A stretch of DNA of 64,000 bases from Bacteroidota bacterium (GTDB lineage: Bacteria > Bacteroidota > Rhodothermia > Rhodothermales > UBA10348), in the NCBI GenBank assembly GCA_029262855.1, contig JAJCYP010000030.1:69111-133110 (forward strand), in the 5' to 3' direction. Position 1 is the stretch's first letter. Every line of letters begins with the position of its first letter. Positions 29,616 through 42,559 of this stretch are shown here, in pieces. The position numbers were made by a program, and so were the translations under genes. The notes under the pieces are model-generated. The model saw nothing but the letters and a program-made list of their open reading frames with translations, was not told the DNA's origin and made no database searches.

Positions 29616-29669
29616 CAGTGTGGACCTTAGGTGGAGGTCCAAAAGGTAGGCACGGTCGGGGCCAAACGA

Positions 29670-29828
29670 GAAAGCCGCCGGCATCTTTCGACACCGCCGG
29701 CTTTTCGTCAAGCAAGACCCCCGGGAGAGCCAGGACCGGGTAGGATACCCCTCAATACCCGCCCGGTCCCATAATGGCTCTCTTGGGGCACACGTTCCGC
29801 CATTTCGGCGGTGGAATGACTTCCCGTG
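29670..29828 (-). ncRNA. Structured leader or small RNA upstream of the M28 gene
   Basis: The minus strand downstream of the promoter at 29862-29835 can fold into three hairpins. First, CCGCC/GGCGG at 29811-29797 around a 5-base loop. Second, a 16-bp stem formed by 29782-29762 and 29740-29725 (GAGAGCCA and GGACCGGG pair with CCCGGTCC and TGGCTCTC), with one 5-base bulge. Third, a long stem at 29706-29670 closing on a GAAA tetraloop, terminator-like but with a poor U tract. No ORF accounts for it. I do not recognise a known riboswitch or the SRP, 6S or tmRNA motifs. It may be a 5' leader of the peptidase mRNA or a separate small RNA ending near 29665. Confidence 0.5.
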
Positions 29829-29834
29829 GGTCAG

Positions 29835-29862
29835 GTATCGGCACGCGAAAGCCAACCTTAAA
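29835..29862 (-). promoter_or_regulatory. Sigma-28-type promoter, divergent, toward the structured RNA and M28 gene
   Basis: On the minus strand TTTAAG (29862-29857), 14 bases, then GCCGATAC (29842-29835). Identical -10 octamer and spacing to the plus-strand sites in this locus; the FliA consensus is TAAAGTTT-N11-GCCGATAA. Its -35 lies 43 bp from the -35 of the divergent pilin-gene promoter. Confidence 0.68.
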
Positions 29863-29905
29863 CCTGTGTTCATGAAGATAAGATGAAGCAATGTGGCGGC
29901 TGGAC

Positions 29906-29933
29906 TTAAGAGTCGGACTCACATCGCCGATAC
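29906..29933 (+). promoter_or_regulatory. Sigma-28-type promoter of the first pilin-like gene pair
   Basis: TTAAG at 29906-29910, 15 bases, GCCGATAC at 29926-29933. The start codon at 29958 would be about 18 bases from the predicted transcript start. It forms a divergent pair with the site at 29862-29835. Confidence 0.7.
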
Positions 29934-29957
29934 CGGACTCGGAAAACCACGTAGATC

Positions 29958-30347
29958 ATGCCCCAAACCCTAATGGCATTCCTGGCGATGATGGTTGCGA
30001 GTATTGCAGCCTACAATCAACAGATGTCGTCCGTTCGCTCTCAGGAGGATCGCATCCGAAGCGAACTGGAAATGATGGCGAGTGCCGTAGCCCTGCATGA
30101 AATCGAAGTCACGGCGGCCTCCAAGAGCTGGACTGCGCTGGACGATCTCGATGACACGTCCGGAACCGCAGACTTCTCGCTCGACACGATCAGCGTTGCC
30201 TTCAACTGGGAGTGGGATGTTCGGTATGTCGATGATCTCGGTGAAATCTCTGCCACTCCCACGGACCTCAAGGAAGCCGAGGTAACCATTACCCATGACC
30301 GCTGGCCCATTGATCTGGTCATCATAGCACGGACGTTTGGACTGTGA
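29958..30347 (+). CDS. Minor-pilin-like membrane-anchored protein 1
   Basis: 129-residue protein with one N-terminal hydrophobic helix (LMAFLAMMVASIAAYNQQ) that runs into an amphipathic helix (RSQEDRIRSELEMMASAVAL) and then a small beta-rich domain. This is the layout of type IV minor pilins or pseudopilins. There is no normal prepilin leader, no cleavage Gly followed by Phe/Met and no Glu at position 5. The C-terminal half (TVTHD-like ...AEVTITHDRWPIDLVIIART) resembles small pilin globular domains. It overlaps the next gene by 4 bp (GTGA). Role inferred from shape and locus only. Confidence 0.6.
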   Translation: MPQTLMAFLAMMVASIAAYNQQMSSVRSQEDRIRSELEMMASAVALHEIEVTAASKSWTALDDLDDTSGTADFSLDTISVAFNWEWDVRYVDDLGEISATPTDLKEAEVTITHDRWPIDLVIIARTFGL

Positions 30348-30916
30348 ACGTAGTACTGGACAATATGTCGGCGACCATCGTGTTCGCCACAATCGCTTTT
30401 GTGCTGGCCATCACCCAGTTCAACATGCAGCAGGACACGGCCGAGGCGACGATAGCCTACATGGCCAAGAAGCACCTGCTCGGATTTGCGGAACTGATTG
30501 AGGACGAATTCGAACTGATAGGCGAGGGCATATCGGGGACCAAGATTGAGTCCCTCACCAGCGACTCAGACGGGAGAACCACTTCGTTCATCTTCAATCG
30601 CGAGATCAGCACGGTGGACACGCAGATCGAGTACCGCCTGGTTCCAGTGGATACGGTACAGTCCAAGGGCCGAGACGTCCCCATCTTCAGGGTCGATCGC
30701 TATGAGGGCACAACGAAGATTGGAGGCGGCCCATCCATGCTCAGTGACTTCAGAGTCGAGCTCCTCACGAGTTCGGGAGGGGCCGCGTCGACCTCTACGG
30801 CAAAAGTGGTGAAGATTACGATGTCCCTCGCCCACAACCTGGGGAACATGGACGACAGCAATGTCAACGTCAGCTATTGGGGAATGACTCTTCGGCCGGC
30901 CAGTCTGGACACCTGA
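30344..30916 (+). CDS. Minor-pilin-like membrane-anchored protein 2 (PilW-like)
   Basis: 190-residue protein. One hydrophobic helix near the N-terminus (MSATIVFATIAFVLAITQFN) continues as an amphipathic helix (TAEATIAYMAKKHLLGFAEL), followed by a beta domain of about 130 residues. The middle reads like PilW/GspJ proteins (TSFIFNREISTVDTQIEYRL), but the N-terminus lacks a prepilin peptidase site and Glu5. The GTG start at 30344 overlaps the previous stop. Expected to be inserted in the inner membrane and perhaps assembled into a pilus tip complex. Confidence 0.6.
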   Translation: MNVVLDNMSATIVFATIAFVLAITQFNMQQDTAEATIAYMAKKHLLGFAELIEDEFELIGEGISGTKIESLTSDSDGRTTSFIFNREISTVDTQIEYRLVPVDTVQSKGRDVPIFRVDRYEGTTKIGGGPSMLSDFRVELLTSSGGAASTSTAKVVKITMSLAHNLGNMDDSNVNVSYWGMTLRPASLDT

Positions 30917-30973
30917 TTCAGCCTGCCCCGTTGCAGGAGTCAGCCCCTGACTTCCGGAAATTTCGGCCGCGGC

Positions 30974-31000
30974 TTAAGGTCTCGCTCATTCTGCCGATAC
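30974..31000 (+). promoter_or_regulatory. Sigma-28-type promoter of the PilX-like paralogue
   Basis: TTAAG at 30974-30978, 14 bases, GCCGATAC at 30993-31000, in the 127-bp gap before ATG 31044. A GGAG sequence precedes the start codon by 4-7 bases. Confidence 0.72.
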
Positions 31001-31043
31001 CTGTGGGTGATACGTACACACCACGTTCGGGGAAACGGAGTCC

Positions 31044-32705
31044 ATGGGAAAGGCAGCGCTGATACTCGTCACGGCCGTGACATTCGCCGGCGGACTCGGC
31101 TACATGAACCAGAACCGGACCAAGACGGATTCCGCCGTCCAGGAGGCACTCTACGAGCACGGCATCCTGGCGCGAGAGATTGCCAAATCCGGTTTCAACG
31201 TTCTCAAGAGCCGGGTCGCGGCTGATTTTGACAACTACAGGTTGTCCGAGGCCGATCGAAGCCACAGGATGGGGAAGATGGACCTGGGCGCCTCCGGGAC
31301 CGCCGGTGGCCCTGTCGCCTTGACGGTGACGGGATACTACAACGATGCCGAGTTCACGATATCGGGCACGATGCAGAGGGGTGGAAGCTCCATTCTCGAC
31401 GCCCTGACCATTGATGGACTGTTGAAGAGTATGCAAGTCAAGAAAGACTCCGACATTTCAGGGTTGGACACCGACCCTGACGGAACCGACGGATCCGGAC
31501 TGGATGTGCACTCTGTTCGCTCGATACTGGCTGCGGCCCACCTGGAGGTTCTGGCCGAGGGGCCACCGGGGCTATTCGCGGGAGTCGCGGGTCTCAACGA
31601 TGTAGTCACAGGCACGGAGACCGACATCTGGGCGCTGATGTCCGCAGTAGAAGACTATGCGGGAGCAGACTTAATTGAATACAGCAGCAAGCAGACGTTT
31701 GATGACGTCACGTTTGGAAGCGCAGCCAATCCCGTGGTGGTTCGAGTCAACGGGAAAACCGAGTTGAAGGGAACCACAACGGGGTACGGAATCCTGTTCG
31801 CGAACGGCGGACTCAAGATGAAGGACGACGCTCGCTGGGAAGGTTTGGTTATTGCGACCGGTGACAAGCCGAAGTTTGATTTTAAGGATGATGCCCGGGT
31901 GTATGGCGCTGTAGTTCTCTCGACTGCCTCTGAAGACGGTAGTGGCAAGGATCCGGGAGGATCCAGTAGCGGCCTGCCGGGTGGTCACTTTGACGTTGAT
32001 GTATTTGACGCCGATGTCAGCACCACCAACGAGGTCTATCACGAACACCAGTACGATGACGACTTCGACAGGACTGACGTCAATATTCTAGGCTACACCG
32101 GTTGCAAGACGGGTGGTGGTCTGTGTTGGGATGACATCATGAGCGGGGAAACCGACGTGTTTGTCTCGTTTCTCAATGCTGGATTCAGCAGCGGCTCCTA
32201 CCGCATCAAGTCTTCCTTTGGTGATCTGACCGGCAATCCGGCAGACGGCCTGGCGCCGACGCTTGTGGATGCCACCACGCTGGACGAATTCTGGGTCAAC
32301 TTCGACGCACTCTGCTCGCTTCAGGAGTCCAGCCCGGGCACGGTGCAGAAGGACGCGGCGAACCGCAACGGAGCATTCAGCATCCAGGTCCATGACGCCG
32401 CCGGAGGCTCTCCGGGGGCCCTGCTGTATGAACTGTCCGTCTATCACCACACGGGCAACGAGTTGCTTTGCGGAACCACGCCAGCGCCCGATCCCGATCT
32501 GGACGGAGACGAAATGACCTACGGACGCGAGATGAAGGTCAAGTTGGACAAGAACGCCTTGCTTCAGTACAGCTCCAGCGCTCTGGAAAATGCTTTCAGC
32601 CTACTGTCGGGATATAGTCTTGGCAGCGGCGACGTCCAGCTGGTCAACATGTCCGAGTCAGGAATTCGTCCAAGCCGGAAGGCGCACGCTGTGATGGGGC
32701 AGTAG
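31044..32705 (+). CDS. PilX-like minor pilin paralogue A (without Asp-rich insert)
   Basis: 553 residues. It begins MGKAALILVTAVTFAGGLGY, a hydrophobic helix starting almost at the initiator Met, then an amphipathic segment (ALYEHGILAREIAKSGFN) like PilX/GspK pilins. The central part contains repeated short beta rungs (VVVRVNGKTELKGTTTGYG, LFANGGLKMKDDARWEGLVI, ARVYGAVVLS) that suggest a bactofilin-like beta-solenoid. The C-terminal part (APTLVDATT, LSVYHHTG) is shared with the next gene. No Glu5 and no classical prepilin cleavage site. Flanked by its own promoter and a strong terminator, so it is a monocistronic unit. Confidence 0.65.
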   Translation: MGKAALILVTAVTFAGGLGYMNQNRTKTDSAVQEALYEHGILAREIAKSGFNVLKSRVAADFDNYRLSEADRSHRMGKMDLGASGTAGGPVALTVTGYYNDAEFTISGTMQRGGSSILDALTIDGLLKSMQVKKDSDISGLDTDPDGTDGSGLDVHSVRSILAAAHLEVLAEGPPGLFAGVAGLNDVVTGTETDIWALMSAVEDYAGADLIEYSSKQTFDDVTFGSAANPVVVRVNGKTELKGTTTGYGILFANGGLKMKDDARWEGLVIATGDKPKFDFKDDARVYGAVVLSTASEDGSGKDPGGSSSGLPGGHFDVDVFDADVSTTNEVYHEHQYDDDFDRTDVNILGYTGCKTGGGLCWDDIMSGETDVFVSFLNAGFSSGSYRIKSSFGDLTGNPADGLAPTLVDATTLDEFWVNFDALCSLQESSPGTVQKDAANRNGAFSIQVHDAAGGSPGALLYELSVYHHTGNELLCGTTPAPDPDLDGDEMTYGREMKVKLDKNALLQYSSSALENAFSLLSGYSLGSGDVQLVNMSESGIRPSRKAHAVMGQ

Positions 32706-32716
32706 GCTCCGTTCGC

Positions 32717-32748
32717 AAAACTCCGCCTCCAATGGGGCGGGGTTTTTT
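32717..32748 (+). terminator. Intrinsic terminator after PilX-like paralogue A
   Basis: Eleven-base stem AAAACTCCGCC/GGCGGGGTTTT with one T-G pair, an 8-base loop and a run of six T. It separates the two paralogue transcription units. Confidence 0.88.
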
Positions 32749-32777
32749 GCTTCCACGACGTTTTTTTGAGACCGGGC

Positions 32778-32805
32778 TTAAGTACTCCCACCCATCCGCC
32801 GATAC
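32778..32805 (+). promoter_or_regulatory. Sigma-28-type promoter of the Asp-rich pilin-like gene
   Basis: TTAAG at 32778-32782, 15 bases, GCCGATAC at 32798-32805, directly after the upstream terminator. ATG 32870 is about 58 bases from the expected transcript start. Confidence 0.72.
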
Positions 32806-32869
32806 CCGACTTGAATGAACCGTGGATTCCCCGCAATGCGGAGTGAATCTACACCAACAGAAGAGCAGC

Positions 32870-35158
<2,289 letters not shown>

Positions 35159-35170
35159 TTGCAGCGGTGC

Positions 35171-35200
35171 CCGGCAGGAAAACGCATGCGTACCTGCCGG
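35171..35200 (+). terminator. Hairpin after the Asp-rich gene
   Basis: Perfect 8-bp stem CCGGCAGG/CCTGCCGG around a loop that itself contains CGC-AT-GCG. There is no T tract and the next start codon follows 4 bp later, so it may attenuate transcription or control the GTG start at 35205 rather than terminate. Confidence 0.5.
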
Positions 35201-35204
35201 CCCA

Positions 35205-36644
35205 GTGACTCAGAAAAAGGAAACAGTTTCCAGAAGGCAGGCCCAGTTTCGGAAGAGACTGGGCCTTCTTCGCGTGTGGCTGGCTCGACCCGTAGACGCG
35301 GCGCCGCTGGCGTATTTCCGGTTCGTCTTCGGCGCGATCATGGTCTGGGAGGTGTATCGCTACTGGTCCAAGGGGTGGATCGACCGGTACTACGTTGAAC
35401 CCCAACTCTTCTTTACCTACCCGGGATTCGGTTGGGTCAGCCCCTGGCCAGAACCGTGGATGGAAGTCCATTTCGCCATTCTGGCCGTCCTGGCTGCGGC
35501 GATTGCGCTGGGCCTGGCCTACAGGATTGCAGCCCCGCTGTTTGCGCTTGGATTCTGGTACGTGTTTCTCCTGGACCAGTCCAACTATCTCAATCATTTC
35601 TATCTGATCGCTCTCGTCGCAACGATTCTGTCGTTCTTGCCGGCCGAGCGCTACGCATCGCTGGATGCAATCTTGCGACCCGAGCTCCGCCGGCGTTGGG
35701 TTCCGTCGTGGACTCTGTGGGTCATCCGATTCCAGTTGGGGGTCGCCTACATCTACGGCGGGCTGGCCAAGATCAATGCCGATTGGCTGGCCGGTCGGCC
35801 CATGGATGACTGGCTTCAGGGATCGAGCGACATATGGCTGGTGGGGCCGTATCTGGAGTTGCCCATCGCGGCCCTGTTGCTCTCGTGGGGTGGTCTTGCG
35901 TTCGATCTGTTGGTCGTACCTGCTCTGGTTTACCGTCGAACCCGCGGGGTCGCGGTCGTTGCCGTGGCGGTCTTTCACCTGATGAACTCACAGATCTTCT
36001 CGATCGGCATCTTTCCCTGGTTCATGCTCGCCGCAACGCCCGTGTTCTTCGGCACGCCCTGGGGGTCAGGTCATCGCGTGAAGGCGGTCCGAGAAAAAAT
36101 CGCGTCCGGTGCCTGCGTTTCAATTGCATTCAGTCGACTCGCGTCCGGCCTGCTCGGCACCTATGTGGTAATCCAGCTACTGGTCCCGTTCCGGCACCTC
36201 GCCTATCCGGGCAATGTGAGTTGGACTGAAGAGGGCCACCTGTTTTCCTGGCACATGAAGCTCCGCGACAAGTCGGGGAGGATCGAGTTCACGGCGCACG
36301 ACCCGAAAACGGGACGTCGCTGGGCGTTCGATCATCGGGATTTCCTGAGCGCGCGACAGGCCCGAAAGATGACGGTCCGACCCAATTTGATTGCCCAGTT
36401 CGCCCGCAAGGCAAAGCCGCGACTCGAGGCATCGCTGGGCGTAACTGGCCTTGAGATCCGCGGGTCGGCCATGGTCTCACTCAATGGACGGGACCGGCGA
36501 CCCATGATCGACCCGGACGTGGACCTGGCCAGTGCTACCTGGGGATGGAAGCCCGCAGATTGGATCCGGCCGCTTGAAGGCGAATCGTTTGCTCAGGGAG
36601 GGGGGCGGTCGGTCCACGTGGGCGCCCGAAGTGATGACCGATGA
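35205..36644 (+). CDS. Vitamin K-dependent gamma-carboxylase-like (HTTM domain) membrane protein
   Basis: 479-residue polytopic protein homologous to the membrane part of GGCX. Matching blocks are FLLDQSNYLNHFYLIALVA then SFLPAERYASLDAIL, AYIYGGLAKINADWL and FHLMNSQIFSIGIFPWFMLA, plus FSWHMKLRDK in the lumenal-side domain. Family members use reduced vitamin K to carboxylate Glu. From memory, the human catalytic base is the Lys in LDKTSWNNH; here the aligned residue is Gln125. The GTG start follows the Asp-rich pilin-like gene by 46 bp, so that product is a candidate partner, though it is Asp- not Glu-rich. Activity unproven. Confidence 0.85.
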   Translation: MTQKKETVSRRQAQFRKRLGLLRVWLARPVDAAPLAYFRFVFGAIMVWEVYRYWSKGWIDRYYVEPQLFFTYPGFGWVSPWPEPWMEVHFAILAVLAAAIALGLAYRIAAPLFALGFWYVFLLDQSNYLNHFYLIALVATILSFLPAERYASLDAILRPELRRRWVPSWTLWVIRFQLGVAYIYGGLAKINADWLAGRPMDDWLQGSSDIWLVGPYLELPIAALLLSWGGLAFDLLVVPALVYRRTRGVAVVAVAVFHLMNSQIFSIGIFPWFMLAATPVFFGTPWGSGHRVKAVREKIASGACVSIAFSRLASGLLGTYVVIQLLVPFRHLAYPGNVSWTEEGHLFSWHMKLRDKSGRIEFTAHDPKTGRRWAFDHRDFLSARQARKMTVRPNLIAQFARKAKPRLEASLGVTGLEIRGSAMVSLNGRDRRPMIDPDVDLASATWGWKPADWIRPLEGESFAQGGGRSVHVGARSDDR

Positions 36645-36648
36645 CGGG

Positions 36649-36688
36649 AATCGCAGGGTAAAAGGCACCGTAGCGGTGCCTGCGATTT
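36649..36688 (+). terminator. Hairpin terminator overlapping the next promoter
   Basis: Nine-base perfect outer stem AATCGCAGG/CCTGCGATT (36649-36657 with 36679-36687); an alternative inner stem GGCACC/GGTGCC (36664-36669 with 36675-36680) shares two bases with it. Only three T follow, and these form part of the -35 element of the next sigma-28-type promoter. Confidence 0.65.
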
Positions 36689-36713
36689 AAGTCTGCCGAG
36701 GGATTGCCGATAC
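36687..36713 (+). promoter_or_regulatory. Sigma-28-type promoter of the small secreted peptide gene
   Basis: TTAAG at 36687-36691, 14 bases, GCCGATAC at 36706-36713. The -35 begins inside the 3' arm of the hairpin terminator of the preceding gene. About 57 bases of leader precede ATG 36777. Confidence 0.7.
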
Positions 36714-36776
36714 AACCCCTGCGGACTCCGTCTTATCGGGATCGGGGCCGCTTCTGGCAACCATCCCTCTCCGGTC

Positions 36777-36935
36777 ATGAAAACTCGATTCGCCCGCGTC
36801 GCCCTGCTCCTTCTTGCCATGGCGACGACGGCTCCCGCCCTCGGCTCAACCTCCGATGGCTTTGGACACGCCGACAGTATCACGAGCGCCACGACTCCCG
36901 GCGGCCGCACAGGCCCCATCATGGAGCGCTACTAG
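36777..36935 (+). CDS. Small exported peptide, 52 residues, unknown function
   Basis: A 52-codon frame with a well-formed signal peptide: positively charged MKTRFAR, hydrophobic VALLLLAMATTAPA, and a cleavage-like ALGS. The predicted mature part is about 30 residues (STSDGFGHADSITS, then ATTPGGRTGPIMERY), rich in Ser, Thr and Gly. Codon use is high-GC at third positions, like neighbouring genes. It has its own sigma-28-type promoter and precedes the ATPase promoter, so it is expressed with the pilus-like locus. There is no Shine-Dalgarno sequence. I recognise no family; the gene could also be a leader transcript with a chance ORF. Confidence 0.5.
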   Translation: MKTRFARVALLLLAMATTAPALGSTSDGFGHADSITSATTPGGRTGPIMERY

Positions 36936-36991
36936 TCTCGATCGGAGATCTGGACCCGAGCGCTAACTTGGTTTCCGTACCCTGAGATCAC

Positions 36992-37018
36992 TTAAGGGCA
37001 TAATCGGCAGGACGATAC
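36992..37018 (+). promoter_or_regulatory. Sigma-28-type promoter of the pilus ATPase operon
   Basis: TTAAG at 36992-36996, 14 bases, GACGATAC at 37011-37018; one base differs from the octamer of the other sites. It would start the ATPase-PilMN-PilO-secretin operon about 50 bp upstream of ATG 37075. Confidence 0.65.
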
Positions 37019-37074: not shown

Positions 37075-38448
37075 ATGTACCGAGACTTACCGCTACCTAC
37101 CTTTTCCGTCGCTGACGCGCCCGGCGGCCGTCCTCGGACGGCCAAAGACGCACGTGCGCTGATGGCCCAGCGGGGCCACACTCCGTCGGCACCCAAGAGG
37201 CAGTCCACTGCGGCACTGAGAGGCCAGTTCAGCCACGAAGTCCCGATGATCATCCGGGAGATGGCTGAGAAGATCCCATACCAGTTTATGGGTTCCGACC
37301 GGGTGTTGTTCGCCTCGGAGCAGGTGCAACGTCTACCCGCCGTGGACAGGCAGGACATGCGGGAGTTCTTCCACCGCGTGGTCCGGCACATGCTGACTCT
37401 GGGCGCGAGTGACATAGACCTGGGAGGGACCTCGTCGAGGGGTTCCATCTGGCTCCGCATACACGGCGAAAAACGGCCCATCCATCAGTTTGGCATGTTT
37501 ACGCCCGATGAGTTTACCGTGCTCATCCTGAATCTGCTGAACGACAAGAGCCGTGTGGTTCTCGAGGAGCACAGGTCCTCCGACTTCTCCTTCTCGCTGC
37601 CCATTGAGGGAGACCGACAGGTCCGGTTCCGGGCATCGGCATACTACGAGATGGACCAATTGGCGCTCAACATGCGCGCGATCACCGACTCGGTACGCCC
37701 ACTCAAGTCGCTCGACCTGCACCCCCAAATCGAGCGTGGTCTGATGTTCAGGCACGTTCGGGACGGACTGACAATCATTGCGGGTGTGACCGGCTCGGGT
37801 AAGAGTACGACGCTGGACGCCATCATCGACGCGAACAACAAGGACTTCGCCGGGCACATTGTTGTGCTCGGCCAGCCTATCGAGTACATGCACCAGTCCC
37901 ACCGGTGCATTGTTCGGCATCGGGAGGTTGGGCGCGACGTCATGTCGTTCAAGCAGGGCATAACCCAGTCTCTTCGACAGGACCCGGATATCGTGGTCAT
38001 CGGTGAGATGAGAGATCCGCAGACCATTTCCGCCACGCTCGAAATCACGGACTCCGGCCACAAGGTGTTTACGACGCTCCATACCTCCTCCGCCGTGGAG
38101 TCGATTGACCGAATCATCGCCGAGTATCCAACCGACGAGCAGGACCGGGTCCGCGGTCGCCTGGCCGACGTACTTCGTTGCGTCATTGCCCAGAAGCTGG
38201 CACCCCGGGTGGGCGGCGGGCGCGTGATGACCAAGGAGGTCCTCTCGCTGGATTCATCGGCGCGCGCCGCCATCAAGAGCGACAACGCCTCCGAGATTTA
38301 TCAGATGATGTGGGAGGGTGGAGCACAGGGCATGACGACCCTGGAGCAGGATCTGTTTCGCCTTCTGAAGCAGGGTCTGATCACCGTGGAGACGGCCGTG
38401 AATTACGCAAACAACAAGAAGCGGCTGAATCAGCTGCTTCGTCGATAA
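37075..38448 (+). CDS. PilT/PilU-like type IV pilus ATPase
   Basis: 457-residue hexameric secretion ATPase. An N-terminal unstructured stretch of about 70 residues precedes the PilT-type N domain (MLTLGASDIDLGG) and the motor core. Walker A GVTGSGKST is at 237-245, Walker B DPDIVVIGEMRD at 303-314, and the His box GHKVFTTLHT follows. The retraction-type block AEYPTDEQDRVRGRLADVL and IAQKLAPR favour PilT over PilB. The Asp box, normally EDPIE, reads GQPIE (266-270), losing two acidic residues. First gene of a four-gene operon with no PilB, PilC or prepilin peptidase in this window. Confidence 0.87.
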   Translation: MYRDLPLPTFSVADAPGGRPRTAKDARALMAQRGHTPSAPKRQSTAALRGQFSHEVPMIIREMAEKIPYQFMGSDRVLFASEQVQRLPAVDRQDMREFFHRVVRHMLTLGASDIDLGGTSSRGSIWLRIHGEKRPIHQFGMFTPDEFTVLILNLLNDKSRVVLEEHRSSDFSFSLPIEGDRQVRFRASAYYEMDQLALNMRAITDSVRPLKSLDLHPQIERGLMFRHVRDGLTIIAGVTGSGKSTTLDAIIDANNKDFAGHIVVLGQPIEYMHQSHRCIVRHREVGRDVMSFKQGITQSLRQDPDIVVIGEMRDPQTISATLEITDSGHKVFTTLHTSSAVESIDRIIAEYPTDEQDRVRGRLADVLRCVIAQKLAPRVGGGRVMTKEVLSLDSSARAAIKSDNASEIYQMMWEGGAQGMTTLEQDLFRLLKQGLITVETAVNYANNKKRLNQLLRR

Positions 38449-38463: not shown

Positions 38464-40191
38464 ATGAAACTGGGATCATCAAGAGACCTTGTCCTGGGCA
38501 TCGCGGTAACCTACCGTGCGGTTCACGGCGTGCTGGTCAAGAACACGCCCGAGGGCCCGGAGGTCGTCCGGCACTTCGACCGCCCCCGCAACATCACGGA
38601 GAACATGCCCACGGGCGCTCCGTCAGACTTTCAGTTCGTCGAGGAGGCGGATCCTGAGGTGAACTTCATCACGGGCGTGCCGGAAACCGACGCCGCCACG
38701 CTCTTCCTGGCCTCAGAGTTCGATGGGGCCAGCCCCACTGGAGAGACGACCGGCTTCGAGGCCATGGGTGCCTCCACGATCGAAATCGAACTGACGGATA
38801 TTCTCGACGAGTGCGCCGAGGCGGGGTATCCCGACCCTGAAGTTGCTTTTTGCGTCGGCTCGACAGACCTGGACTACCACGAAGTCCTGGTTCGCTCCAA
38901 GAAGGGGGCCCAGGACCGCGCCGCAAAGAAGGGGAAAGGCAAGCGTCAGGAAAACGGCAAGCTTATACAGCACCTGGCCGCGTCCACGGACTCGAAGTTC
39001 GATCCGGACCAGACGATCTTCATCCCGATGACCCCGAACGAGGAGCGCGTACCTCGCTACCTCGCGGTGTGTGCCCGTCCGAGCGAGATCATCGTACCGA
39101 CTCTTCGCCGATTGGCCGCGCGCAAGCGGACGATTTCCGTTGGCGTGATTGAGACGGAGGTCAGCCTCCTGCTCGGCATGGTGCGCCGGATGGTGGCCGA
39201 TGCCGATGAAGGTCGTACGCCGCCCTCGCGCCTTCTCGTGCGTGTCGGTGCCGACGACACGGTCATTCTGCTTCTGGAAGGCAACAATCTGAAGCACGTC
39301 GAGTCGCTTCGGTCCATCACGTCCTTCGATTCGCCGGACACCGTCTGTTCTCGCATTCTCCTGCTCCAGGACGAGCAAGGCTTTTCCGATCCTGACGAGA
39401 TGCTGGTCTTGGGTGAGGAAAACGAGGAGTCCCTGACACGGCGTCTGGGTGAGTTCTTCGAGGACACCGAGGTCAGGAGTCTACGTCCGCAGCTGCCGCG
39501 CAGCAGGGATGACCTGGACGAGGAATATTCCCGGGAGGGAACGCTGGCGGCCGCTGCCATTGTTCGTCACCTGACGGACCCGCAGGGCAAGGTCTACTTC
39601 GAGCCCGTCACGCTGCTGCCAAAGAAGCTGTTTCGCCGCGGAATCAGGCTGGAAGGCCTCAAGTGGCAAGTCGTCCCCATGATGGTGGTCCTGTTTGCGA
39701 CGGTGCTGTTCTTCATGCATCGGTACTTGCGGCAGACGAACGAGGCGAAAAATCTCGAGATCAAACTCGGCGAATACCCGGCCGAAATGGTCGAGGGCAA
39801 CAAGGAAAACCTGCAGGCCCGCATCGATTCCATTCAGGCCGTCACGGCCGGATACATCCAGGCACTTTACGTCCTGGACAGCATCCTTGTGGGGAGTGAC
39901 CGCTGGAGCCGCACCATGGAGCAAACCTCACGCGAGGCGGCCTCCGTTCCAGGTATTTGGATTGAGAAGTGGGAAGAAGGAGGCGGACTCCTTGAGCTGG
40001 AGGGGACCGCAACCGATCGGGATCAGGTGGTTCGGTACGCCGCCAGAATGGACGGTCAGATACAGAGCCTCTCGTTTGGCGAGATTCGCGATTGGCCCGT
40101 CTACCAGTTCAAGATGGCCGTGCCTCTTCCCGACGAATTGCCAGCGGCCGCACAGTTCCTCCGCGAACAGGCTCGCTCATCCGGAGAGTAA
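38464..40191 (+). CDS. PilM/PilN-like fused pilus assembly protein (GspL-like)
   Basis: 575 residues: an actin-like cytoplasmic part of about 390 residues (RDLVLGIAVTYRAVHGVLV at the N-terminus, EVAFCVGSTDLDYHEVLV, VGVIETEVSLLLGMV, RLLVRVGADDTVILLLEG), then one membrane helix (WQVVPMMVVLFATVLFFM, about 401-418), a coiled coil and a small periplasmic domain. This is PilM plus PilN in one chain, as in GspL. A good GGAGG Shine-Dalgarno lies 6 bases before ATG 38464. Only 3 bp separate it from the PilO-like gene. It would form the inner-membrane platform with the ATPase. Call based on architecture and order; sequence similarity is weak. Confidence 0.7.
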   Translation: MKLGSSRDLVLGIAVTYRAVHGVLVKNTPEGPEVVRHFDRPRNITENMPTGAPSDFQFVEEADPEVNFITGVPETDAATLFLASEFDGASPTGETTGFEAMGASTIEIELTDILDECAEAGYPDPEVAFCVGSTDLDYHEVLVRSKKGAQDRAAKKGKGKRQENGKLIQHLAASTDSKFDPDQTIFIPMTPNEERVPRYLAVCARPSEIIVPTLRRLAARKRTISVGVIETEVSLLLGMVRRMVADADEGRTPPSRLLVRVGADDTVILLLEGNNLKHVESLRSITSFDSPDTVCSRILLLQDEQGFSDPDEMLVLGEENEESLTRRLGEFFEDTEVRSLRPQLPRSRDDLDEEYSREGTLAAAAIVRHLTDPQGKVYFEPVTLLPKKLFRRGIRLEGLKWQVVPMMVVLFATVLFFMHRYLRQTNEAKNLEIKLGEYPAEMVEGNKENLQARIDSIQAVTAGYIQALYVLDSILVGSDRWSRTMEQTSREAASVPGIWIEKWEEGGGLLELEGTATDRDQVVRYAARMDGQIQSLSFGEIRDWPVYQFKMAVPLPDELPAAAQFLREQARSSGE

Positions 40192-40194
40192 ATC

Positions 40195-41202
40195 ATGGGA
40201 CCTGCCAACAACTTTCTCGTGATCGGAACGATCTGGCTCCTGTCAGTCGGGCTCGGCACGTGGATGACTTTTTTCAAGCAGCCTTCTGAGCTGGAAGACC
40301 TTCGGGCCACCGAACAGATGGCGCGAATTCACCAAAGCGATGTCGCCTCGCTGTTGACCGAGGAGTCCCAAATGCTGGGGAAGGCTTCGGCCATCCAGGC
40401 CCAATGGGACTCCCGATACAAGACGATTCCCAAGCGCCTGGAGACGCATGAGGTCATCGCCTATCTGAATGGACTGACCATGTCGGGTTTCGAGAGCTTC
40501 AACGTCACCTACGACGAGAACCTCGGCGGCGCGGACTTCAACACGCATGTCTTTTCGATTCAGGGCCGGAGCACCTATGCCGCACTCTACGAGTTCGTCT
40601 GGGCCATTGAGAATTACCGATCATTCTATCGACTCGCCCGATTCGAACTGTCGCACATCGACCTGCCGTCCGTCGACAAGAAAACCGGTCGCGACCGCGT
40701 TGACGTCTACGTCTCTTTCGACTTCAAATTGCACGCCTTCTACGGAGGCAAGGCCGGGCTCAGCGCCGACGACCAACTGCCCGGAACGATGATGGAAGGC
40801 ATCACGCCATCCACCGAGCTGCCTCCGGTTCCCGCGTCCGTTCTCCCGGCCCGGACGCCGGCCAAGGACCCCTTCTATCCGATCATCATGTCGGATATCC
40901 CGCCGAACACGCACGACCTCCTTGATCTCGACTTCGCAGATCTCATCTCGATCGTCGACGGCAAGGCTGTCTTCACGATCGTCAGCCGTAACCAGACGGG
41001 AGATACCAGCTCGCGGCTTGTCACGGTTGGAGTCGGAGACGATGTCTATCTCGGCAGAATCGTGATGGTTGACCCCATCAACAACAAAGTGGTGGCCCGC
41101 CTGAACATCGGCGGCATCATGGACGAGCGGATCTTCGAATTGGAGACCGCAGCCAACTTCCGCCAGGCCATCGGCCCTGCCCAACTGGCACCCTCAAACT
41201 GA
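40195..41202 (+). CDS. PilO-like inner-membrane pilus assembly protein
   Basis: 335 residues with one N-terminal membrane helix (FLVIGTIWLLSVGLGTWMTFF), a coiled-coil segment (ELEDLRATEQMARIHQSD) and a ferredoxin-like periplasmic domain (THVFSIQGRSTYAALYEFVW, YRLARFELSHIDLP). That is the PilO/GspM layout. The C-terminal 120 residues (from about 215) resemble a PilP-like HR domain (FTIVSRNQTGDTSSRLVTVG, VYLGRIVMVDPINNKVVARL), so PilO and PilP functions may be merged here. Inferred from order and topology. Start codon 3 bp after the upstream stop. Confidence 0.65.
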   Translation: MGPANNFLVIGTIWLLSVGLGTWMTFFKQPSELEDLRATEQMARIHQSDVASLLTEESQMLGKASAIQAQWDSRYKTIPKRLETHEVIAYLNGLTMSGFESFNVTYDENLGGADFNTHVFSIQGRSTYAALYEFVWAIENYRSFYRLARFELSHIDLPSVDKKTGRDRVDVYVSFDFKLHAFYGGKAGLSADDQLPGTMMEGITPSTELPPVPASVLPARTPAKDPFYPIIMSDIPPNTHDLLDLDFADLISIVDGKAVFTIVSRNQTGDTSSRLVTVGVGDDVYLGRIVMVDPINNKVVARLNIGGIMDERIFELETAANFRQAIGPAQLAPSN

Positions 41203-41215
41203 CGGGCCCCAAGCA

Positions 41216-42559
41216 ATGAAAACATCTCGCATCGCCCTTCTTCTGGTCGTCGCCCTGATAGGCGCCTCGACCGTTCAGGCCCAGCGCGTGCCGCAGCGTG
41301 CCCTGAGGACGTACATCCCGGAAGACCAGCTGGTATCCTTTCTGCCCTCGACACCGATGTCCACCTACCTGCAGTTGGTGAATCCCATTTTTGCCCGGGT
41401 GGCCGGCAAGGAGGTCATCGACCCCGATGGAATGGACTTCGAGATCGGGATCCCTCTCCAGGCCATGCATTTTCTGGATGCGACGGAGATGGTCCTGGCG
41501 TACAACGGATACGTCCTGCGTGAGACGGACAAGTACTTCATGGTCGAACCAGCTGCTCCGATCGACCCCGTGGATCCCATACCGGGCGGGATGACGATTG
41601 ACCCGGCGACGGGCGCTGCAGTCGTGGGCCTGGCCTCGCTGGCTACAAAGCAGGTCCGCATCAGCGCCGTCCTTTTCGAACTGAACCACACCAAGGCACG
41701 TGACTCCGGCATCAATTGGAGCGTCATCTTTGGCGAAGCGAGCGCGGCCGCGGCAGCCGGTGGCGGCTCGACATCAGCGGGCGGCGGCGGTCAGGGTCTC
41801 AATTTTTTCCTGAAGACCGATGAACTGTTCAAGCCCCTGAACGACTTTCTGATCTCGCCAAGTGTGATAGATCTGAAAGATCTCAAGTCCCTCATCCAGC
41901 TTGCCGAGGCTTCAGGCGTTGGTGAGACGATTGCAAGCCCCGAAATCACCGTGCAGTCTGGACAGAAAGGCAATTTTCAGAGCGGTCAGGACATTCCGAT
42001 CCAGACGTTGGACTTCTCGGGCAACACGATCACCACGCTGCTGCAGACCGGTATCATCATCAATGTAACGCCCACGATTATCACCGAACTCAGCCCGGAT
42101 TCGGTGGAGGTGGAGATTGTCCATCTGGATGTCAGCGTGGAGCGCTCGTCCAGCCGTCCGTCAACGGCAGGTCCGATCATAGACCGCAGCCAGGCCGGGA
42201 CCCAGGTCGTGTCGCTCAACGGTGAGCAGGTCATGATCGGTGGACTCTACAGCACCGATGAGGCCGTTTCACGTCGTGGCGTACCGTTTCTCAAGGATCT
42301 GCCAGGGTGGTTCTTCGGCCTGAAATATCTCTTCTCGCGTTCCCAAACCACCGTCTCGCAGAAGGAACTGCTCATGGTTCTGCAGGCCGACATCGTCGAG
42401 CCCCTGCTCACCCGGTCGGAGAAACCCTACCAGCAGGATCTTCTGGGTCGTCGACGTCAGCAGGTTCAGGATGCGCTCCGTCGCTTCAACGAGCAGGTTA
42501 ACGCCAACAGGGAGAAGCCGAACCGTTACGACGGCCAGAACGAGGAAAAGAAAAATTAG
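41216..42559 (+). CDS. Secretin (PilQ/GspD-type outer-membrane channel)
   Basis: 447-residue outer-membrane pore subunit. Signal peptide IALLLVVALIGASTVQA, a short N domain (to about 130), then the secretin core: VRISAVLFELNHTKARDSGI, a Gly-rich insertion, IQLAEASGVGETIASPEITV, the GQDIPIQTLD block and TGIIINVTPTI, followed by GEQVMIGGLYSTDE, VPFLKDLPGWFFGLKYLFSR and ELLMVLQADIVEPL. It is short for PilQ or GspD because most periplasmic N0-N3 domains are missing. Last gene of the operon, followed by a terminator at 42630. Confidence 0.9.
   Translation: MKTSRIALLLVVALIGASTVQAQRVPQRALRTYIPEDQLVSFLPSTPMSTYLQLVNPIFARVAGKEVIDPDGMDFEIGIPLQAMHFLDATEMVLAYNGYVLRETDKYFMVEPAAPIDPVDPIPGGMTIDPATGAAVVGLASLATKQVRISAVLFELNHTKARDSGINWSVIFGEASAAAAAGGGSTSAGGGGQGLNFFLKTDELFKPLNDFLISPSVIDLKDLKSLIQLAEASGVGETIASPEITVQSGQKGNFQSGQDIPIQTLDFSGNTITTLLQTGIIINVTPTIITELSPDSVEVEIVHLDVSVERSSSRPSTAGPIIDRSQAGTQVVSLNGEQVMIGGLYSTDEAVSRRGVPFLKDLPGWFFGLKYLFSRSQTTVSQKELLMVLQADIVEPLLTRSEKPYQQDLLGRRRQQVQDALRRFNEQVNANREKPNRYDGQNEEKKN

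What the first reader, a model, noticed from the sequence alone, without database searches (positions are those of the whole stretch)
29835..37018. Six clustered sigma-28 (FliA/WhiG)-type promoters over a pilus-like locus
Six intergenic sites share TTAAG, a 14-15-base spacer and GCCGATAC (one GACGATAC): minus strand 29862-29835 and plus strand 29906, 30974, 32778, 36687 and 36992. This fits the FliA consensus TAAAGTTT-N11-GCCGATAA in both element sequence and spacing. I saw no flagellar gene here; instead each site precedes a pilin-like gene, a small secreted peptide gene, the pilus ATPase operon or a structured RNA. A flagellar-type sigma factor appears to run a type IV pilus-like regulon.
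Basis: partly seen in the sequence, partly recalled or inferred. Interest (0 to 1): 0.85.

Follow-up and report, generated by a model that had tools for sequence, protein, structure and literature searches.

The report
Flagellar sigma factor runs pilus genes
In a bacterium of the Rhodothermales (Bacteroidota), the switch protein that normally turns on flagellum genes appears also to turn on the genes for a second surface organelle, the type IV pilus, and most relatives that lost the flagellum have kept the switch and its pilus targets.

Summary
All six sites (TTAAG-N14/15-G[CA]CGATAC) are exact and intergenic; 0.01 were expected. The genome has 15 such sites against 0 for the reversed pattern. 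It has one FliA/WhiG sigma factor, above the curated cut-off. In relatives the same motif precedes flagellin genes, so it is the order's sigma-28 promoter. Over 119 genomes it follows FliA: in genomes without flagella, 109 sites against 19 reversed with FliA, 18 against 21 without. Spacing peaks sharply at 14-15, and a purine-rich base 8 nt downstream marks a likely start site. Sites precede the pilus ATPase, the ComZ-like minor pilins and the major pilin across the order.

One correction: this genome does have a flagellar locus, and its sigma factor is the ordinary flagellar FliA. Of 24 relatives with neither FlhA nor flagellin, 20 keep FliA; in the one examined closely, its neighbours are unchanged. 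So sigma-28 appears to outlive the flagellum as a pilus sigma factor.

Sigma-28-type control of pili is known in Rubrobacter and Actinoplanes; I found no report for Bacteroidota. There are no transcript or binding data. One non-flagellated genome has a pilin site but no FliA found.

The parts
29906..29933 (+). sigma-28-type promoter before the first pilin-like gene; predicted start about 29941 (G)
   Evidence: same position before pilA in L294
29958..30347 (+). pilin-like gene 1 (129 aa, N-terminal hydrophobic stretch)
   Evidence: no Pfam/NCBIfam match; orthologues in the same order in G001, G002, G010, G011
30344..30916 (+). pilin-like gene 2 (190 aa), overlaps the first gene
   Evidence: predicted helix 3-56 followed by a beta-sheet, pLDDT 84.6; no fold match in PDB
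30974..31000 (+). sigma-28-type promoter before large minor pilin 1
   Evidence: a site also precedes the large minor pilin in L307, L313, G001, G004
31044..32705 (+). large minor pilin 1 (553 aa)
   Evidence: predicted helix 3-60 then beta domains; best PDB match is pilin ComZ of Thermus thermophilus, E 5e-4, low TM-score
32778..32805 (+). sigma-28-type promoter before large minor pilin 2
32870..35158 (+). large minor pilin 2, paralogue of the first, with Asp-rich repeats
   Evidence: 45% identity to the first
35205..36644 (+). HTTM / vitamin-K-dependent gamma-carboxylase homologue
   Evidence: PF05090 E 2.7e-92, PF22777 E 1e-41; orthologue at the same place in G001
36687..36713 (+). sigma-28-type promoter before a secreted 52-aa peptide
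   Evidence: site and peptide conserved in G001
36777..36935 (+). 52-aa predicted secreted peptide, C-terminus ERY conserved in G001
36992..37018 (+). sigma-28-type promoter before the pilus ATPase operon
   Evidence: 16 of 41 named relatives have a perfect site upstream of this ATPase, reversed control 0
37075..38448 (+). PilT-family pilus ATPase
   Evidence: TIGR01420 312.6 bits against a cut-off of 319.1
38464..40191 (+). PilM-position protein (575 aa)
   Evidence: no library match; found in 74 of 119 genomes
40195..41202 (+). PilN/PilO-position protein
   Evidence: no significant library match; conserved order
41216..42559 (+). PilQ-like secretin
   Evidence: PF00263 E 5.8e-28; TIGR02515 E 4e-27, below cut-off
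29835..29861 (-). sigma-28-type promoter of a divergent short transcript
29661..29827 (-). predicted small RNA of about 165 nt: long hairpin then a terminator hairpin
   Evidence: 76% identical over 189 nt in G001, matched changes on both arms of the terminator stem; no Rfam match

Best explanation
The six sites are promoters of the organism's flagellar-type sigma factor FliA (sigma-28). RNA polymerase carrying FliA reads TTAAG-N14/15-G[CA]CGATA[CA] and starts about 8 nt after the octamer. It thereby switches on a type IV pilus regulon: pilin-like genes, ComZ-like large minor pilins, a secreted peptide, the PilT-like ATPase-PilM-N/O-Q operon and a small RNA. In this genome the same sigma factor probably also serves flagellin and the major-pilin/PilC/PilB locus, so flagellum and pilus would be made together. 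In most of the family the flagellum is gone, but FliA, at least in the member examined at its old chromosomal place, and its pilus promoters remain. Shown by sequence: motif, sigma gene, conservation, co-occurrence, spacing, start-site signature. Inferred: recognition by FliA, transcription, and that these filaments work as pili.
For: Motif far above chance in window and genome. One FliA/WhiG gene, 193.8 bits against a cut-off of 189.6. Motif about 110-120 bp before the Flagellin_N start in many relatives; own flagellin has TTTAG-N14-GCCGATAA. Motif counts follow FliA: without flagella, 109 vs 19 reversed with FliA, 18 vs 21 without. Allowing spacings 2-32 in ten genomes, 71 of 90 matches fall at 14-15. 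G at the 8th base after the octamer in 59 of 113 sites against 25% background, p about 1e-9, in flagellated and non-flagellated genomes alike. Site upstream of the ATPase: 16 of 41 named loci perfect, 20 at 12 of 13 or better, reversed control 0; upstream of the major pilin across families. FliA of the family is one clade (99/98) holding flagellated and non-flagellated members; small ORF-FliA-PpiD-DapF-PhoH order is kept in non-flagellated G004.
Against: No transcript or binding data. G015 (96% complete, two contigs) has the site before its pilin but no FliA was found; G014 and G017, less complete, also lack it. Own major pilin and flagellin have only near-perfect sites. Pilin identity rests on gene order, predicted helices and a weak fold match. 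Relatives are not statistically independent.
Confidence: 0.9

Rival explanations
1. The motif is the binding site of some other regulator or sigma factor that came with the pilus genes and merely resembles a FliA promoter.
For: Three family members with no intact FliA found still carry it before the pilin; some family members have a second, divergent FliA-like sigma factor.
Against: Same motif before flagellins; collapses in families without FliA; -35/-10 spacing and start-site signature; own genome has only one FliA at E 1e-40 or better.
Confidence: 0.06
2. The sites are real FliA promoters, but the pilus genes are a minor side branch: expression depends mainly on other promoters, and FliA only adds coupling to flagellar assembly.
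For: Own genome keeps a flagellar cluster; own flagellin and major pilin have near-perfect sites.
Against: Sites persist before pilus genes in relatives without any flagellum.
Confidence: 0.2
3. The motif cluster is a chance or repeat artefact.
For: None found.
Against: Expected 0.01 in the window; spacers differ entirely between sites; conserved positions in relatives.
Confidence: 0.005

Closest known systems
WhiG-RsiG control of type IV pili in Rubrobacter (PMC8325347)
   Same: A flagellar-clade sigma factor with -35 TAAA / -10 GCCGATAA promoters, three of them in a type IV pilus gene cluster, in a bacterium using it for pili.
   Different: Actinobacterium; controlled by c-di-GMP through RsiG; promoters mapped by 5'-end sequencing there. 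Here Bacteroidota; no anti-sigma factor identified; -35 is TTAAG and the octamer ends mostly in C.
WhiG-like flagellar sigma factors of Actinoplanes missouriensis zoospores (cited in PMC8325347)
   Same: Flagella and type IV pili both driven by flagellar-type sigma factors.
   Different: There both organelles appear on zoospores; here most of the family has lost flagella yet kept sigma factor and pilus promoters.
SigF of Synechocystis and Nostoc (PMC7690835)
   Same: A group 3 sigma factor drives pilin genes.
   Different: SigF acts mainly on the major pilin there; here ATPase, secretin operon and minor pilins have sites too.
Enterobacterial FliA class 3 promoters
   Same: Spacing and octamer.
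   Different: Regulon here includes pilus machinery.

Membership tests
FliA/WhiG sigma factor | Score above the curated TIGR02479 cut-off | tested here: met
   193.8 against 189.6 bits; non-flagellated G004 orthologue 199.0
FliA/WhiG sigma factor | Sigma-70 regions 2, 3 and 4 in a short protein | tested here: met
   PF04542, PF04539, PF04545 all above cut-off in 254 aa
FliA/WhiG sigma factor | Gene placed with the flagellar cluster | tested here: met
   In G001 flhA and fliA lie 2.3 kb apart with a MinD/FlhG-like gene between; in the own assembly both lie at contig ends
Sigma-28 promoter | -35 TAAA-like, -10 GCCGATAA-like, fixed spacing | tested here: met
Sigma-28 promoter | Present before flagellin genes of the clade | tested here: met
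   many relatives; own flagellin with one -35 mismatch. Absent before some flagellins
Sigma-28 promoter | Transcription start 6-8 nt after the octamer | tested here: inconclusive
   Purine signature at the 8th base, but no transcript data
Type IV pilus system | Assembly ATPase PilB and platform protein PilC | tested here: met
   Homologues at C69 with the pilins: T2SSE E 1.8e-99, T2SSF E 3e-27; equivalog cut-offs for PilB/PilC not reached
Type IV pilus system | PilT-family retraction ATPase | tested here: inconclusive
   312.6 bits against a cut-off of 319.1
Type IV pilus system | Secretin | tested here: met
   PF00263 98.0 against 27.5 bits
Type IV pilus system | Pilins recognised by pilin families / N-terminal methylation motif | tested here: not met
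   No Pfam/NCBIfam pilin match; only helix plus beta architecture and a weak ComZ match
WhiG-RsiG c-di-GMP switch | RsiG anti-sigma factor | not tested

The most novel reading that the evidence does not exclude
In this family the flagellum was lost at least twice while its sigma factor stayed and became a dedicated type IV pilus sigma factor: a regulator outliving the organelle it is named for, with a sigma-28-driven small RNA as an extra output in the own genus.
Probability: 0.65. Interest if true: 0.7.

Novelty: new variant of a known kind. Interest (0 to 1): 0.62.

Why it matters
FliA genes are often read as evidence for flagella; here 20 of 24 non-flagellated relatives carry one, so that inference fails. 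It extends sigma-28-type control of type IV pili from Actinobacteria to Bacteroidota and shows it conserved over much of an order. It offers a natural series of flagellated and non-flagellated relatives in which to ask how a sigma factor is released once there is no flagellar export to signal completion.

Tried and rejected
Rfam scan of the window: nothing. Fold search of pilin-like gene 2: no match. Idea that the genome has no flagellum and so an orphan sigma factor: rejected, a flagellar cluster is on C49. The second TIGR02479 hit (127 bits) looks like the housekeeping RpoD from its sequence and groups apart in the tree. Two relaxed hits in the flagellar contig (151890 and 164272) were not taken as promoters. 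Literature search for this link in Rhodothermales, Salinibacter or Rhodothermus: no report in the held library.

Full report
OBSERVATION. The six sites are real and exact: TTAAG, a spacer of 14 (four sites) or 15 (two sites), then GCCGATAC (GACGATAC once). Dinucleotide shuffles give 0.01. All six lie between genes. Octamer end to start codon is 24 to 64 nt for the five plus-strand genes. In the whole genome (4.74 Mb, 146 contigs) the pattern TAAG-N14/15-GMCGATAM occurs 15 times and never in the reversed control. Every hit also has the leading T, which was not asked for. Outside the window, sites precede ORFs that look like lipoproteins or secreted proteins, including a subtilase, an NlpC/P60 protein and a two-component propeller kinase; a few have no clear gene.

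THE SIGMA FACTOR. The genome has one FliA/WhiG-family gene above the curated cut-off, at C5:72623-73387 minus. The next hit, 127 bits, looks like RpoD. Contrary to what the window alone suggests, the genome has a flagellar cluster: FlhA at 819 bits, with FlhB, MotA/MotB and other flagellar-type proteins beside it by their sequences, and several flagellins. In sister species G001, flhA and fliA are 2.3 kb apart; in G000 the two lie at the ends of two contigs, which fits a break between them. The sigma factor is therefore most likely the ordinary flagellar one.

THE MOTIF IS THE SIGMA-28 PROMOTER. (1) It lies about 110-120 bp before the Flagellin_N start in many relatives; the own flagellin has TTTAG-N14-GCCGATAA. 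(2) Over 119 genomes it follows FliA: flagellated with FliA, 4.76 sites per genome; no flagellum with FliA, 3.41 (109 sites, reversed control 19); no flagellum and no FliA, 0.38 (18 sites, control 21). Within family f13 alone, 9 genomes with FliA have 22 sites and 18 without have 1. (3) When spacings of 2 to 32 are allowed in ten genomes, 71 of 90 matches fall at 14-15 and 79 at 13-16. (4) The 8th base after the octamer, not part of the search, is G in 59 of 113 sites (25% expected, p about 1e-9) and a purine in over 80% of sites from FliA-bearing genomes, flagellated or not. That is what an initiating nucleotide would look like.

THE PILUS REGULON IS CONSERVED. In G001 the same gene order carries sites at corresponding places, including the pair before the 52-aa peptide and the ATPase. 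Among 41 loci, in named genome records of the order, that encode the PilM-position protein, 16 have a perfect site upstream of the ATPase and 20 have at least 12 of 13 positions; reversed sequence gives none. The other half of the system, the major pilin MGQQQLLLLVLG..., PilC and PilB, is at C69 in G000. In relatives its first pilin gene has the site mostly 60-90 bp upstream, in flagellated and non-flagellated species; in G000 the best match is TTAAT-N15-GCCGATAA, 148 bp upstream. Of 58 pilin upstream stretches in FliA-bearing genomes (a few counted twice), 32 score 12.5 or more of 13.5.

FLAGELLUM LOST, SIGMA FACTOR KEPT. In the window's family (27 genomes) only the own genus has FlhA and flagellin; 20 of the other 24 keep FliA. 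The family's FliA proteins in the tree form one clade (99/98), apart from the divergent second paralogue of G004. Flagellated and non-flagellated members are mixed in it; non-flagellated G010 is sister to the own genus (96/89), so at least two losses are likely. In non-flagellated G004 the order small ORF, fliA, PpiD, DapF, PhoH is the same as in G000, and the first part of it is the same in G001, with the flagellar genes upstream gone. Regain of the cluster by the own genus is less likely but not excluded.

WHAT THE GENES ARE. The ATPase is PilT-like (just under cut-off), and the last gene is a PilQ-like secretin. The pilin-like proteins match no family; models show an N-terminal helix of about 55 residues followed by beta structure, and the large one best matches pilin ComZ of Thermus at low TM-score. 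The minus-strand site heads a predicted 165-nt RNA with a terminator, 76% identical in G001, no Rfam family.

COMPARISON. A flagellar-clade sigma factor driving type IV pili is known in Rubrobacter, under c-di-GMP control, and flagellar-type sigma factors drive both pili and flagella in Actinoplanes (PMC8325347). Cyanobacterial SigF drives pilins (PMC7690835). I found no report in Bacteroidota in the held library. So the principle is known; the lineage, the order-wide extent and the retention after flagellum loss are new as far as I could test.

WEAK POINTS. No transcripts. G015 has a site before its pilin but no FliA was found in a 96% complete assembly of two contigs; G017, less complete, is similar; G014 also lacks FliA; G023 has a fragment. 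It may be a recent loss, an assembly gap or another regulator. Related genomes are not independent samples. How FliA is released without a flagellum is open; a conserved small membrane protein encoded directly before fliA is a candidate only.

Noticed in passing
window 35205-36644: Vitamin-K-dependent gamma-carboxylase homologue (HTTM plus VKGC lumenal domain) between the large pilin and a conserved secreted 52-aa peptide.
   Followed up: partly
window 29661-29861 minus: Predicted sigma-28-driven 165-nt RNA, long hairpin plus terminator, 76% identical in G001, no Rfam family.
   Followed up: partly
L020:19406-19693 minus and homologues: Small membrane protein of 85-100 aa encoded directly before fliA, kept also where flagella are lost; possible FliA regulator.
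   Followed up: partly
G004:C16:47593-48234 and others: Several non-flagellated family members have a second, strongly divergent FliA-like sigma factor.
   Followed up: no
window 34050-34630: Asp-rich DDDDGDS repeats inside large minor pilin 2.
   Followed up: no
L025 (G000:C115:48600-48626): Another site followed by a strong terminator-like hairpin within 150 nt; possibly a second small RNA or a short leader.
   Followed up: no
L026 (G000:C123:94127-94154 minus): A site precedes a gene for a two-component propeller histidine kinase of about 1550 aa; possible signalling output or feedback of the regulon.
   Followed up: no
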